Origin: Luteibacter aegosomatissinici
GTDB taxonomy: Bacteria > Pseudomonadota > Gammaproteobacteria > Xanthomonadales > Rhodanobacteraceae
Reading direction: 5' to 3'
NCBI RefSeq assembly: GCF_023078495.1
Contig: NZ_CP095742.1
Location: forward strand, 3,286,001 to 3,350,000
DNA: 64,000 bases
In this document: one piece after another, positions 4,488 to 34,459 of the stretch
How the letters are laid out: each line of letters starts with the position of its first letter
Numbering within the stretch: the stretch's first letter is position 1
Program-made: the position numbers and the translations under genes
The notes under the pieces: generated by a model
What the model was told of the DNA's origin: nothing
The model's database searches: none
What the model saw: the letters and a program-made list of their open reading frames with translations, nothing else

Positions 4488-4832
4488 TCAGCCAGGCGGC
4501 CAGTGCATCTGCCGGCCCGCCAGCAGGTGCACATGGATGTGGAAAACGGTCTGACCGCCATGCGTGTTGGTGTTGATCACCGTGCGGTAGCCGTCCTTCG
4601 AGAAACCTTGCGCGCGTGCGTACGCCGCGGCGGCCAACAGCAGTTTGCCAAGCAACTCGGCATCACCCGGGATCGCATCATCGAGCGTGGCAATAGCGCG
4701 CTTGGGAATGAAGAGCACGTGCACCGGGGCCTGCGGATTCAGGTCGCGGAACGCGAGCACGTCGTCATCCTCGTAAACGATGTCGGCGGGGATCTCGCGG
4801 CGGACGATCTTCGAGAAGATGGTATCGGTCAC
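4488..4832 (-). CDS. hinT: Histidine triad nucleotide-binding protein
   Basis: This 114-residue HIT-domain protein resembles E. coli HinT, a purine nucleoside phosphoramidase. The N-terminal segment TIFSKIVRREIPADIVYEDD and the active-site HIHVH (His98, His100, His102) are both typical. The GTG start at 4832 is chosen because a CAGGAG Shine-Dalgarno lies just upstream; a longer reading would run into recR. The gene is the last of the dnaX-ybaB-recR-hinT series, 19 bases beyond the recR stop, and ends at a shared terminator. Confidence 0.92.
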   Translation of the reverse strand: MTDTIFSKIVRREIPADIVYEDDDVLAFRDLNPQAPVHVLFIPKRAIATLDDAIPGDAELLGKLLLAAAAYARAQGFSKDGYRTVINTNTHGGQTVFHIHVHLLAGRQMHWPPG

Positions 4833-4851
4833 TTCAAACTCCTGGGTGTAA

Positions 4852-5454
4852 TCAACCGAGCGATTGCCGGCTTCCGAACGCATGCGCCAGCGTGCCCCGA
4901 TCAACGAATTCGAGCTCACCGCCCAACGGCACGCCGTGGGCCAGGCGCGTGGCACGAATGCCGGCCGCGCGGGCCAGTTGGCCGATGTAATGCGCGGTGG
5001 CTTCGCCCTCGACCGTTGGATTCGTGGCGATGATCATTTCCTCGACACCGCCCTCACCCAGCCGCTCGGCCAGCAATCGCAGGCCCAGCTCTTCCGGGCC
5101 CAGGCCATCGAGCGGAGAGAGCCGCCCCAGCAACACGAAATAATGGCCACGGTACCCCGTAGCCTGTTCGATCGCGGCAAGGTCCGAGGGCGATTCCACG
5201 ATACAAAGGACGTGGCTGTCGCGGCTGGTACTGGCGCACAACGTGCATACCGGGGTTTCGCTGAAATTGCGGCAGCGCGTGCAGTTGCCCACGTCGCGCA
5301 TGGCCGATTCCAGCGCGGACGCGAGGCGCAGGCCGCCCTGCCGCTCGCGCTCGAGCAGATGGAACGCCATGCGCTGCGCACTCTTTGCACCCACGCCCGG
5401 CAGGCAGCGCAGCGCGTCGACCAGTTCGCCAAGCAGGCGGGAACCGTTGCTCAT
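4852..5454 (-). CDS. recR: Recombination protein RecR
   Basis: RecR works with RecF and RecO to load RecA at single-stranded DNA gaps. The 200-residue length matches the family. An N-terminal helix-hairpin-helix region ([17 protein letters not shown], about 18-34) is followed by a four-cysteine zinc finger (Cys58, Cys61, Cys70, Cys73) and a Toprim domain from about residue 81 ([10 protein letters not shown]). It lies 17 bases downstream of ybaB, in the conserved dnaX-ybaB-recR order. Confidence 0.97.
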
Positions 5455-5471
5455 GTAAGTAACAGGCCGCC

Positions 5472-5795
5472 TTAGAACGGCATCTTGAAGCCGGGCGGCA
5501 GGTTCAGGCCCGAGGTGACACCGCCCAGCCGGGAGCGGCTGACTTCGGCGATCTTGTTCACGGCATCGTTGATGGCGGCCGCGACGAGGTCCTCCGCCAT
5601 TTCCGGATCATCGGCAAACGTCTGGCGATCGATGTGCACACTGCGCACTTCATGGCCGCCGCTCATGGTCACGGTGACGAGGCCACCACCGGCGCTACCG
5701 GTAATCTCCGTTTTCGCCAGTTCTTCCTGCGCACGCTTCATTTCATCCTGCATACGCTGGGCCTGCTGCATCAGCTGACCGATTTGACCTTTCAT
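5472..5795 (-). CDS. ybaB: YbaB/EbfC nucleoid-associated protein
   Basis: The 107-residue protein has the YbaB layout: an N-terminal helix rich in Gln, Met and Lys ([19 protein letters not shown]), a central strand region with [11 protein letters not shown] and a C-terminal helix. Family members are small dimeric DNA-binding proteins. The start codon overlaps the dnaX stop by four bases, consistent with coupled translation, and recR follows 17 bases later. Confidence 0.95.
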
Positions 5796-31599: not shown

Positions 31600-32991
31600 A
31601 TGAACGTGGGCACGTCTGACCCCAAGCTCCTCGACGCCTCGGCCTCCCCCGCCGCCGAAGGCATCCTCGCCCCCCGCTACCGTGCCGCGACCCTCGGGAT
31701 GGTGGCTCTGATTTCCCTGATCGCCTTCGAGGCACTGGCGGTCACGACGGCCATGCCGACCGTGGCCCGTGAACTCGATGGCCTGCGGATCTACGCCCTC
31801 GCCTTCGGCGGCGTCCTCGCTACCAGCGTGATTGGCATGGTGATCTCCGGCCGCTGGAGCGATCGGCGCGGGCCGGCGCCGGCGATGTGGACCGGCCTGG
31901 CCGGCTTCGTCGCCGGCCTGCTGGTCGCCGGCTTCGCGCACGCCATGCCCATGCTGCTTGTGGGCCGGTTGATCCAGGGCCTGGGTGCTGGCCTGCTCTC
32001 CCCGGCGCTTTATGTGATCGTGGGCCGGCTCTATCCCGATCACCTGCGGCCAAAGGTCTTCGCCTCGTTTTCGGCCGGCTGGGTCGTGCCAGCCCTCATT
32101 GGGCCGGCGGTGAGCGGCCTGATCGTCGAGCACATCGGCTGGCGCTGGGTTTTCCTCGGCGTACCACTGCTGGCCCTGCCGGCTGCCCTGGGTCTCCGCG
32201 GGGCACTTCGCAGCCTCGACGCGCCGGTCGCGCACACGGATGATCGGCCGGGCCAGATGCTGAACGCGATCGGCGCGTCCATAGGCGCATGCACCCTCTT
32301 CCTCGCCGGGCAGGAACACGGCTGGCGCGCTGCTGTTCTTCTTTTACCAGCGATCGGTGCGCTCATCAGCTGCGGCCGCCGCCTTCTACCGCCGGGCACG
32401 CTTCGGGCCGCGCGCGGCCTCCCGTCCGTGGTTGGCCTCCGCGGACTCGTTGCATCAGCGTTTTTCGGTGCCGAAGCCTTCCTTCCGCTCGCCTTCTCCC
32501 GCCAGCATGGCCTGTCGCCCACCTGGTCGGGGCTCGCCATCAGCGTCGGCGCCGTCGGCTGGTTCTCGGGTTCGTGGTACCAGGGCCACCTGGCGAAGAT
32601 CTCGCGCCAGGCGCTGCTCAATCGCGGGACGGGCCTGATGGCGATCGGCACGATCGTCGCCGGCCTGGCTACGTTCGCTGCGACGCCCGTGGCGGTCGCG
32701 GTGCTCGGCTGGCTTACGACAGGCCTCGGTATCGGCATGGTGTACGGCACGGTATCCACGCTCGCGCTTTCTATGTCGGCAGCGCACGAACAGGGTACGA
32801 ATGCCTCCGCTCTTCAGCTCTGCGAATCGCTCGCGGTCGCCGCGACACTCGCCATCGGCGGTTCGCTCTTTGCGGCATTGCTCAACGTTTCGCAGACCAT
32901 GGCGTTCGGCGCGAACTTTGCGATCACGGTGGCGCTGGCGTGGCTGGCGAACGTCGTGGCGCGCAGGACGAATGCGCCGGCCCACGTGTAG
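31600..32991 (+). CDS. MFS drug-efflux-type transporter
   Basis: This 463-residue inner-membrane protein has about 14 hydrophobic segments, motif A as GRWSDRRGP after the second segment, and GRLIQGLGAGLLSP in the fourth, the pattern of drug/proton antiporters (DHA2-like). An AAGGATTG ribosome site precedes ATG 31600. It is divergent from soxR and its promoter contains a SoxR-like site, so induction by redox-active compounds such as phenazines or quinones is likely. The substrate is inferred from context only. Confidence 0.87.
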   Translation: MNVGTSDPKLLDASASPAAEGILAPRYRAATLGMVALISLIAFEALAVTTAMPTVARELDGLRIYALAFGGVLATSVIGMVISGRWSDRRGPAPAMWTGLAGFVAGLLVAGFAHAMPMLLVGRLIQGLGAGLLSPALYVIVGRLYPDHLRPKVFASFSAGWVVPALIGPAVSGLIVEHIGWRWVFLGVPLLALPAALGLRGALRSLDAPVAHTDDRPGQMLNAIGASIGACTLFLAGQEHGWRAAVLLLPAIGALISCGRRLLPPGTLRAARGLPSVVGLRGLVASAFFGAEAFLPLAFSRQHGLSPTWSGLAISVGAVGWFSGSWYQGHLAKISRQALLNRGTGLMAIGTIVAGLATFAATPVAVAVLGWLTTGLGIGMVYGTVSTLALSMSAAHEQGTNASALQLCESLAVAATLAIGGSLFAALLNVSQTMAFGANFAITVALAWLANVVARRTNAPAHV

Positions 32992-33061
32992 CAAGGGAAA
33001 CCCTCACACCAACTCGCGAGCAAGGGCGCCTTTCCGCGCTAACGTAAGTCACCTACTTTGC

Positions 33062-33083
33062 AGCAAGGCAGATTCTGCCTGCT
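33062..33083. promoter_or_regulatory. Operator-like palindrome before the small membrane protein genes
   Basis: The sequence AGCAAGGCAGATTCTGCCTG then CT is a dyad (GGCAGA-T-TCTGCC in the centre, extended to AGC/GCT with one bulged base), 24 bases before the first ATG of the islet. It could be an operator or a short attenuator hairpin. Confidence 0.4.
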
Positions 33084-33106
33084 ACGCTGCGAGGTGAGAG
33101 AACGTC

Positions 33107-33325
33107 ATGGACAGGGCCATTACATTGGACGAAGAACGAAAGCGCTGGTTCGAGGAATACAAGCGCACGTCGCTCGAGATGCGCAAGATGTACGCCGAGC
33201 TGGACAAACTCGAGTACGAGAAAAACTGGTATCCGTTCTGGATCGGCGTCGGCCTCGTGACGTCGATCCTCACGTCACTCGCAACCTTTGCGACGCTGCT
33301 ATTCACGATCGCCAGGAAGATCTGA
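33107..33325 (+). CDS. Small YP-motif membrane protein 1
   Basis: The 72-residue protein has a charged N-terminal helix (residues 5-40, with regular Glu/Lys/Arg), the motif NWYP at 40-43 and one transmembrane helix (about 45-68) ending in IARKI. No signal peptide or enzymatic motif is present. It shares its layout with the proteins at 33326 and 33888: helix, aromatic-Tyr-Pro, membrane span. GAGGTGAG lies about eight bases before the ATG. The next gene starts directly after its stop codon. Function unknown; a homo- or hetero-oligomeric membrane complex is a guess. Confidence 0.75.
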   Translation: MDRAITLDEERKRWFEEYKRTSLEMRKMYAELDKLEYEKNWYPFWIGVGLVTSILTSLATFATLLFTIARKI

Positions 33326-33724
33326 ATGGAAACCCTACGCTTCGCGTCGGGCAACGGCGACTGGAAAGGGCCGGCGAGCGTGTCTACCTTAAACGAAGGC
33401 AACTCGCGCCTGCAGGCATCAAGGCAAGCATCGATGGACGGCAACCGAGCGATGGACAAGCACTTCGGCGACGATGACCGACAGAGGGCACGGCTGGAAC
33501 GTAAAAAGCTTCGCGCCGAACTCAAAAAGATCAGGTTCGAGGTCGAAAGAAAGATGACCGAAGATCTGGTCCAAACACAGACCATGACCTCCAGGCTCAT
33601 TGCGGAGACACGAAAGTTCAACGAGGAAGCGCGGCACTATCCATGGATCACTTTTGGCGCACTGATTCTTAGTGGTATCGCTGCGCTCACCGGGTTGGTC
33701 TCCGCTTTATTCAGGGCTGCGTGA
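33326..33724 (+). CDS. Small YP-motif membrane protein 2
   Basis: This frame encodes 132 residues. The first 40 are low in pattern and may be untranslated if ATG 33434 is the real start, but ATG 33326 has a good AGGAAG site and directly abuts the stop of the previous gene. Residues 50-103 form a long, very charged helix (RARLERKKLRAELKKIRFEV), followed by RHYP and a transmembrane helix (about 108-129). The same helix-YP-membrane plan as its neighbours suggests tandem duplication and divergence. Function unknown. Confidence 0.68.
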   Translation: METLRFASGNGDWKGPASVSTLNEGNSRLQASRQASMDGNRAMDKHFGDDDRQRARLERKKLRAELKKIRFEVERKMTEDLVQTQTMTSRLIAETRKFNEEARHYPWITFGALILSGIAALTGLVSALFRAA

Positions 33725-33887
33725 GCTTCAGACGACATACATTGACGCTGCTCTATGCGCGGCTACCCGAACCATACGGAGGCCTATGTACGGGAGCTTG
33801 CCGCACTGGCGACGCAGCACCGACCCGAGCACGTGTGATAAGTGCGCTGGGAACCCACTAATTCACCTGATACGCTAGGGGCATCCA

Positions 33888-34103
33888 ATGGCTGAGGCCA
33901 AGACCGTGAACGCCGCCGACCTCGAACTGATCCACGCGAACATCTCGAAGACCATGGCCGAGACCATGAAGCTCGGCGCAGAGACCGCGAAGATTCAGGC
34001 GGAGCAGCGCTATTACCCGATGGTTGCGCTCGGGGCCATCGTTGTCGGCGCCCTCGGCGCTGGCGCGTCCATCATCGCCGGCGTAATCAAGCTGGCGTAC
34101 TAG
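33888..34103 (+). CDS. Small YP-motif membrane protein 3
   Basis: The 71-residue protein has an amphipathic charged helix (LELIHANISKTMAETMKLGA, then ETAKIQAEQ), the motif RYYP at 41-44, and a Gly/Ala-rich transmembrane helix (about 46-68). TAGGGG lies seven bases before ATG 33888. It follows a 163-base gap after protein 2, which holds no convincing gene, and is followed by a strong terminator, which closes the islet's transcription unit. Function unknown. Confidence 0.75.
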   Translation: MAEAKTVNAADLELIHANISKTMAETMKLGAETAKIQAEQRYYPMVALGAIVVGALGAGASIIAGVIKLAY

Positions 34104-34133
34104 CGCCCCTTCGATTCCAAGCGTTACGCAACG

Positions 34134-34160
34134 AACCCGCCCTTACCGGCGGGTTTTTTG
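34134..34160 (+). terminator. Terminator after the YP-protein genes
   Basis: AACCCGCC pairs with GGCGGGTT across CTTACC, followed by a run of six T. Confidence 0.88.
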
Positions 34161-34182
34161 TCGTCTGCGGTCAGGGGGTCAC

Positions 34183-34290
34183 ATGCGCGCTTATCGCGTC
34201 GATGAAGTGAACGACCGGGTGAAGCTCAGCATGATTGACGGCGCTGCGGCACTCACTGCGCTCCGTGGCACCTCGCGTGCGAGGGCTTAA
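34183..34290 (+). CDS. Possible 35-residue ORF
   Basis: A short frame MRAYRVDEVNDRVKLSMIDG and 15 more residues has a CAGGGGG site four bases before its ATG. It lies between the islet terminator and tRNA-Leu. It may be a real small protein, or the remnant of a larger gene lost from the tRNA-adjacent end of the islet. No family is recognised. Confidence 0.3.
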   Translation: MRAYRVDEVNDRVKLSMIDGAAALTALRGTSRARA

Positions 34291-34374
34291 TCGTTACGGG
34301 ACAGAGATTGTTACGTCAGATGTAACTCTTACGGTGTCGTAACGCCTAAGTGCCTGATTCAAGTCACTTGGCGC

Positions 34375-34459
34375 TGGTGCGAAAGGGGGGACTCGAACCC
34401 CCACGGATTACTCCGCCAGAACCTAAATCTGGTGCGTCTACCAATTCCGCCACTCTCGC
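34375..34459 (-). tRNA. tRNA-Leu(TAG)
   Basis: Class II tRNA on the minus strand: acceptor GCGAGAG/CTTTCGC, anticodon arm CAGATTTAGGTTCTG with TAG, variable arm, T-arm GGGGGTTCGAGTCCCCC and encoded CCA. Its 3' end faces the islet at 33062-34290. Confidence 0.97.

What the first reader, a model, noticed from the sequence alone, without database searches (positions are those of the whole stretch)
33107..34103. Tandem set of three small helix-YP-membrane proteins in a tRNA-adjacent islet
Three consecutive small genes (33107, 33326, 33888) encode proteins with one shared plan: a charged amphipathic helix, an aromatic-Tyr-Pro junction (NWYP, RHYP, RYYP) at the same place, then a single transmembrane helix. 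Overall identity is low, so they look like diverged paralogues that act together, perhaps as a hetero-oligomer. They lie between an MFS gene and the 3' end of tRNA-Leu, a usual insertion target, have their own terminator, and no known function. A role in a membrane-linked stress or defence response is only a hypothesis.
Basis: partly seen in the sequence, partly recalled or inferred. Interest (0 to 1): 0.7.

Follow-up and report, generated by a model that had tools for sequence, protein, structure and literature searches.

The report
Prophage leftover with small membrane proteins
Three small bacterial genes beside a tRNA belong to one little-studied family of single-pass membrane proteins that temperate phages carry; at least one is left over from a decayed phage, and the family may protect the cell against further phages, which is untested.

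Summary
P1 (33107-33325), P2 (33326-33724) and P3 (33888-34103) share a charged helix, an aromatic-Tyr-Pro hinge and one C-terminal membrane helix. All three match phrog_6330, and a profile built without Luteibacter members scores each above all of its 2000 shuffles.

They are not simply a local tandem duplication. P3 lies in a relic of a T7-like temperate prophage: its gene, terminator, the start of the next phage gene, the last ~20 integrase codons and the attachment region in tRNA-Leu(UAG) align to phage contig L009, with about 4.7 kb missing. P1 is a separate resident, with an orthologue after the same MFS gene in one other species, dN/dS about 0.07. P2 abuts P1; its origin is unclear.

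The family is phage cargo: of 54 viral contigs, 10 have the order terminase-member-integrase and 33 an XRE-type gene just downstream. Many members carry TGNTANNCT just before the start codon.

The role of the Serratia phage homologue is stated as unknown in print. Best guess: lysogenic conversion, probably superinfection exclusion at the inner membrane. Inferred, not shown.

The parts
33080..33088 (+). TGCTACGCT, extended -10-like element 18 bases before P1's start
   Evidence: the same kind of element in 14 of 25 Luteibacter members against 0 of 178 long ORFs. The consensus sigma-70 scan of the region found no promoter, so promoter activity is inferred.
33107..33325 (+). P1, 72 aa, helix-NWYP-membrane helix; chromosomal resident with an orthologue in G010 (L047 2684-2902)
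33314..33319 (+). AGGAAG, likely ribosome site of P2 inside the end of P1
   Evidence: read from the sequence
33326..33724 (+). P2, 132 aa, long N-terminal helix, RHYP hinge, membrane helix; origin unclear
33755..33838 (+). 27-codon ORF, weakly similar (46% over 24 aa, E 0.004) to a place upstream of the family member in T7-like contig L103; possible phage debris
33853..34230 (+). stretch 80% identical to phage contig L009 4982-5351
33868..33876 (+). TGATACGCT, extended -10-like element 11 bases before P3's start, identical in L009
33888..34103 (+). P3, 71 aa, helix-RYYP-membrane helix; 78% identical to the L009 phage protein
34133..34156 (+). terminator hairpin followed by T run, conserved in four T7-like phage contigs
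34183..34290 (+). 35-aa chimeric ORF: start of the next phage gene fused to the end of the integrase
34227..34428 (+). stretch 86% identical to L009 10042-10243: last ~20 integrase codons, following intergenic DNA and attachment core
34375..34459 (-). tRNA-Leu(tag), the attachment gene

Best explanation
Shown: P1, P2 and P3 belong to one family (phrog_6330) of small membrane proteins found in temperate phages. P3 sits in the integrase-side relic of a T7-like temperate prophage that had entered tRNA-Leu(UAG) and lost nearly everything but P3, its terminator and the attachment end. P1 is a separate, conserved resident of the same spot, and P2 follows it. Inferred: each protein sits in the inner membrane by its C-terminal helix, with a helical rod of heptad pattern (AExxKLx) on the cytoplasmic side and a Trp/Tyr-Tyr-Pro hinge at the membrane surface, probably as oligomers. 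They are expressed from their own signals in the lysogen or host and act as lysogenic-conversion factors, most likely by hindering genome entry of other phages (superinfection exclusion). A host that keeps such a gene after the prophage decays keeps the protection, which would explain the several copies in Luteibacter.
For: Family. Relic. Cargo place: terminase-member-integrase order in 10 of 54 viral contigs. Exchange at a fixed slot: three T7-like contigs have members 96.6-98.4% identical in protein while the 230 bases that follow are 77-88% identical; L009 has a 42-46% identical member while those bases are 78-83% identical. Own signals: upstream element in 14 of 25 Luteibacter and 4 of 10 T7-like members against 0 of 178 long ORFs, conserved terminator. 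Constraint: P1 pair dN 0.099, dS 1.39; 28 P3-type pairs have dN/dS 0.08-0.53. G004 keeps an intact P3-type gene beside a polymerase fragment and an integrase fragment with a stop. In Serratia the homologue lies beside O-antigen acetyltransferase genes in prophages (PMC7556043, passages). Precedents seen as passages or abstract only: prophage inner-membrane exclusion proteins (PMC10883804) and the cryptic-prophage small protein DicB (PMC6832061).
Against: No functional data. No member of alignment A1 reached a defence-family match worth using in PADLOC (best E 0.013, one member). In 33 of 54 viral contigs the gene is paired with an XRE-type gene, which plain exclusion does not require. P1 is a stable resident with no phage sequence around it, which also fits a host role. 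No consensus sigma-70 promoter was found. Altered P3-type copies exist in G004 (tRNA site) and G006, so the gene is not always kept. The dN/dS values mix phage and host history.
Confidence: 0.45

Rival explanations
1. Host membrane or stress proteins: Luteibacter has taken the family over for a cellular role (for instance stationary-phase membrane scaffolding), and phages merely spread it.
For: P1 strongly constrained between two species at one site; a second locus beside miaA-like and S46-peptidase-like genes in the own genome and similar places in other Luteibacter loci; family in 16 of 23 genus genomes but 5 of 369 class-wide genomes, own included.
Against: Patchy presence even at the best-studied site (10 of 23); most relatives found outside the genus are in phage or plasmid sequence, though the searches aimed at these.
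Confidence: 0.2
2. Membrane-active toxin or growth modulator controlled by the XRE-type protein encoded downstream in many phages (a toxin-antitoxin-like pair); Luteibacter copies are orphan, tamed versions.
For: XRE-type gene directly downstream in 33 of 54 viral contigs and 6 of 24 genome contigs, 29-44 bases away; one XRE protein has a weak, below-cut-off match to an antitoxin-like HTH model (E 4.3e-4).
Against: No such gene downstream of the Luteibacter members in the fetched loci; for the window I only read the ORF list. None of the 10 T7-like contigs has it.
Confidence: 0.2
3. Phage lysis or entry helper (holin- or antiholin-like) that is only useful in the phage cycle; the window copies are leftovers.
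For: 3 of 27 members have a weak match to a holin PHROG (best E 0.0075); in several phages the gene is not far from lysis genes.
Against: In IFTN8, BZS1 and Pkon1 it is on the strand opposite to the late genes; one predicted membrane helix; P1 is constrained outside any prophage.
Confidence: 0.08
4. Neutral debris: the genes persist by chance after prophage decay.
For: P3 lies at the attachment end, which deletions often spare; altered P3-type copies in G004 (tRNA site) and G006.
Against: Low dN/dS of the P1 pair; intact frames of P1, P2 and P3; upstream element and terminator kept.
Confidence: 0.07

Closest known systems
phrog_6330 and phrog_9071 (phage protein families of unknown function)
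   Same: All three window proteins match phrog_6330 (E 1.7e-4, 1.6e-10, 2.7e-8) and phrog_9071 (E 0.043, 6.9e-4, 2.3e-4).
   Different: Chromosomal residents such as P1 lie outside any prophage; the profiles carry no function.
PhiBZS1_p26 of Serratia phage vB_SspM_BZS1
   Same: Family member with one C-terminal membrane helix in a temperate phage (PMC7556043, passages).
   Different: Paired with an HTH gene (p25) and next to an acetyltransferase gene; the window copies are not.
T7-like temperate phages (LUZ100, pelagiphages with tRNA-Leu remnants)
   Same: Polymerase and integrase close together, tRNA-Leu involved (PMC10134795, passages); L009 has the T7-type polymerase and terminase domains.
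   Different: The window keeps only the integrase end as a relic. I did not compare L009 with LUZ100 directly; LUZ100 was not among the phage records found with a family member.
Prophage superinfection-exclusion membrane proteins (P22 SieA, HK97 gp15)
   Same: Inner-membrane proteins made by prophages, carried as extra genes (PMC10883804, passages; the gp15 paper itself was not read).
   Different: SieA has three predicted membrane helices; no sequence relation was tested directly and none appeared in the library searches.

Membership tests
phrog_6330 | profile match | tested here: met
   P1 1.7e-4, P2 1.6e-10, P3 2.7e-8; independent profile and shuffles
phrog_6330 | carried by phages | tested here: met
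   P3 and its flanks match phage contig L009; for P1 and P2 no flanking phage sequence was found
T7-like temperate prophage | integrase and attachment site at a tRNA | tested here: met
   last ~20 integrase codons and attachment core, 86% identical to L009; the far attachment end was not found in 32901-34374
T7-like temperate prophage | phage RNA polymerase present | tested here: not met
   no relative in the own genome at E <= 1e-10; hence a relic, not a prophage
Superinfection-exclusion proteins of the SieA / HK97 gp15 kind | blocks superinfection | not testable with these tools
   needs phage plating on expressing strains
Superinfection-exclusion proteins of the SieA / HK97 gp15 kind | expressed from the prophage by its own signals | tested here: inconclusive
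   conserved upstream element and terminator, but no consensus sigma-70 promoter and no transcript data
Superinfection-exclusion proteins of the SieA / HK97 gp15 kind | inner-membrane location | tested here: inconclusive
   one predicted C-terminal membrane helix; location not measurable here
Toxin-antitoxin pair with XRE-type antitoxin | antitoxin gene next to the toxin gene | tested here: not met
   none downstream of Luteibacter members in fetched loci; window by reading the ORF list; met in 33 of 54 viral contigs
Toxin-antitoxin pair with XRE-type antitoxin | toxicity relieved by the partner | not testable with these tools
   needs expression tests

The most novel reading that the evidence does not exclude
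A family of exchangeable, phage-borne, tail-anchored proteins, spread over Alpha-, Beta- and Gammaproteobacteria, that exclude other phages; in Luteibacter and its T7-like phages they travel with their own near-leaderless promoter, and the genus has taken them over as a multi-copy chromosomal set (P1-P2-P3 here, a second pair beside an S46-peptidase-like gene).
Probability: 0.3. Interest if true: 0.65.

Novelty: new member of a known kind. Interest (0 to 1): 0.42.

Why it matters
It gives a phage protein family of unknown function a concrete, testable setting: small cargo genes that outlive their prophage and gather in one bacterial genus. If they exclude phages, the slot between terminase and integrase of temperate T7-like phages is a place to look for more exclusion genes. 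It also documents relics of temperate T7-like phages at tRNA-Leu in Luteibacter.

Tried and rejected
Local tandem duplication as the origin of all three: rejected for P3. Known families: no Pfam, NCBIfam or PADLOC match that I could use; at E <= 5 the 27 members of A1 gave only stray matches, the lowest being NCBIfam NF058653 LipP1 (1.5e-4, 2 members) and Pfam HOASN (0.0042, 2 members). Solved relatives by sequence: 4 matches, best E 0.023, VAP-A, taken as chance. Fold search of P3 among viral models: 20 matches, none with E <= 0.001. tblastn of P2 and of P3 against phage records: no match; a shorter relative found 15 phage records at E <= 1 and 28 plasmid records at E <= 0.1. E. coli genomes with an XRE-linked stretch: no match. 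Paper search for the PHROG number: 0 papers; searches for small membrane exclusion proteins showed none that named this family in what I saw. A MarR-like regulator beside the L009 integrase was suspected by position only; no family hit. The peptide first translated from 33757 was out of frame; the right ORF starts at 33755.

Limits: of 30 distinct Luteibacter members I used 25 and dropped five (L046 twice, L052, the second of L067, the 131-aa ORF of L047) for lack of a clear start or because they are altered. The 178 background ORFs have mechanical starts and include non-genes. Starts of several members were chosen by eye. NG86 values are near saturation for some pairs. The 127 entries are redundant; one search uses 54 distinct viral contigs. 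The contig searches rest on short peptide patterns, so counts are lower bounds and biased.

Full report
What was checked. P2 begins directly after P1's stop codon, and AGGAAG in P1's end suggests coupled translation. P3 stands 163 bases further on. A terminator-like hairpin follows P3, then tRNA-Leu(tag) on the minus strand, its 3' end towards the islet.

One family. Pfam gives nothing usable, but all three proteins match phrog_6330. An iterated search over ORFs of the fetched loci gathered 32 ORFs, one of them a duplicate from an overlapping locus. All 27 members put into alignment A1 match phrog_6330 and phrog_9071 at the E <= 5 limit used there (best 1.4e-11 and 1.2e-7). To exclude a composition artefact I built a profile from 61 distinct members outside Luteibacter and without the L009 phage: P1, P2 and P3 score 33.4, 45.4 and 51.8 bits, and none of 2000 shuffles of each, made separately before and after the hinge, reaches that. 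In the 50-row alignment A4, E32, K35, E39 and P44 of P3 are invariant. Predicted structures of P3 and P2 show a long helix, a two-residue break at the hinge and a second helix; pTM is low, so the angle between the helices is unknown. The topology (N-terminus inside) and oligomers are inferred.

P3 is phage cargo. Viral contig IMGVR_UViG_3300048854_000042 (locus L009) encodes a protein 78% identical to P3, and also T7-type RNA polymerase and terminase, a phage lysozyme and a tyrosine integrase (Pfam). Window 33853-34230 matches L009 4982-5351 at 80% and window 34227-34428 matches L009 10042-10243 at 86%. So the window holds P3 with its upstream element, its terminator and the first codons of the next phage gene, then jumps about 4.7 kb in phage terms to the last ~20 integrase codons, the following intergenic DNA and the attachment core, which is the 3' part of tRNA-Leu. 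The jump makes the chimeric ORF 34183-34290. The far attachment end was not found between 32901 and 34374, and the own genome has no relative of the L009 integrase at E <= 1e-30 or of its polymerase at E <= 1e-10. It is a relic, not a prophage. A 27-codon ORF before P3 has a weak match (E 0.004) upstream of the member in T7-like contig L103.

P1 and P2. P1's best relative is an orthologue in G010, after the same MFS gene; dS is 1.39 and dN 0.099. Similarity to G010 ends with P1. P2's relatives are spread over alphaproteobacterial, Luteibacter and phage sequences with similar scores, so its origin is open.

The site. All 23 genus genomes have tig and tRNA-Leu(tag). Between MFS and tRNA-Leu a family member is present in 10 (in G003 the tRNA is on another contig); the gap is only 57-169 bases in 5; 765-4725 bases without a member above threshold lie there in 6 (G001 has a sub-threshold ORF, E 0.0083); and in 2 no MFS gene was found and tig lies 72-73 bases from the tRNA. 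G006 is only 80% complete. The genus is Luteibacter: contigs of several same-genus genomes have the lengths of named Luteibacter records, e.g. 447267 and 801383 bases.

Elsewhere. In the own genome a second pair lies at 3383717-3384295, beside miaA-like and S46-peptidase-like genes named by reading the sequence. The family was found in 16 of 23 genus genomes and in 5 of 369 class-wide genomes, own included; 14 control genomes had none. In G004 an intact P3-type gene lies 3.4 kb from a polymerase fragment and 11.9 kb from an integrase fragment with one stop codon. Altered P3-type copies lie at the tRNA site in G004 and G006.

Phage contexts. Among 54 distinct viral contigs with a member, 10 have the order terminase, member, integrase on one strand, 33 have an XRE-type gene directly downstream, none has both, and 11 have neither; 2 of these 11 carry a T7-like polymerase. 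Of 24 genome contigs 6 have the XRE gene. Named phages with members are Bordetella IFTN8, Serratia BZS1, Paracoccus Pkon1 and 12 Moraxella records; the first three have an XRE neighbour, the two Moraxella records that I opened do not. The Serratia authors noted the HTH/membrane pair, its copies in prophages beside acetyltransferase genes, and wrote that they had no clue about its role (PMC7556043, passages).

Own signals and exchange. TGNTANNCT ending 8-18 bases before the start occurs in 14 of 25 Luteibacter members used (of 30; five dropped) and in 4 of 10 T7-like phage members, against 0 of 178 long ORFs of the same Luteibacter loci; the looser TANNCT gives 15, 8 and 1. If it is an extended -10 element, many transcripts would begin only a few bases before the start codon. 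Against this, the consensus sigma-70 scan found no promoter in 32950-34380. Among four T7-like contigs, three have members 96.6-98.4% identical while the 230 bases that follow are 77-88% identical; L009 differs (42-46% protein identity) although those bases are 78-83% identical. Alleles thus seem to be exchanged at a fixed slot, as immunity or exclusion genes often are (general knowledge), which is no proof.

Function. I hold the family and relic parts at about 0.95 and the whole statement, with superinfection exclusion, at 0.45. The XRE pairing keeps a toxin-like or regulated role open, and the resident copies keep a host role open. No functional data exist here.

Verdict. A real family, well spotted by eye; a row of three that is partly a coincidence of insertion; an uncharacterised phage cargo with a plausible but untested defence role.

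Noticed in passing
upstream of XRE-linked members, e.g. L118 5294-5348, L082, L143, L161: These members share a 5' stretch like GAGGTAGCG...CGCAGCCC...CGAAAGG before the start codon, which may fold as a hairpin or bind a regulator.
   Followed up: no
own genome G000:C1:3383717-3384295 (L038 7679-8314): A second pair of family members between miaA-like and S46-peptidase-like genes, with similar neighbours in several other Luteibacter loci.
   Followed up: partly
L047 3039-3434 (G010): After the P1 orthologue lies a 131-aa coil-repeat ORF; the family match there crosses a stop codon, and a transglycosylase-like ORF follows at 4707-5483.
   Followed up: no
L040 and G004:C1:4179027-4191260: Decayed T7-like prophage with intact P3-type gene, polymerase fragment, integrase fragment with a stop, and an IS3-like transposase gene (transposase named by reading).
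   Followed up: partly
L039 (G005:C4, around 262885): P3-type gene with an L009-like integrase (44% identical) and an ATPase-like ORF (named by reading), a few kb from a tRNA-Leu(taa), tRNA-Cys, tRNA-Gly cluster.
   Followed up: no
L055 (G022): tRNA-Leu(tag) lies on the strand opposite to tig and to the neighbouring tRNA cluster, unlike the other genomes in which both were seen on one contig.
   Followed up: no
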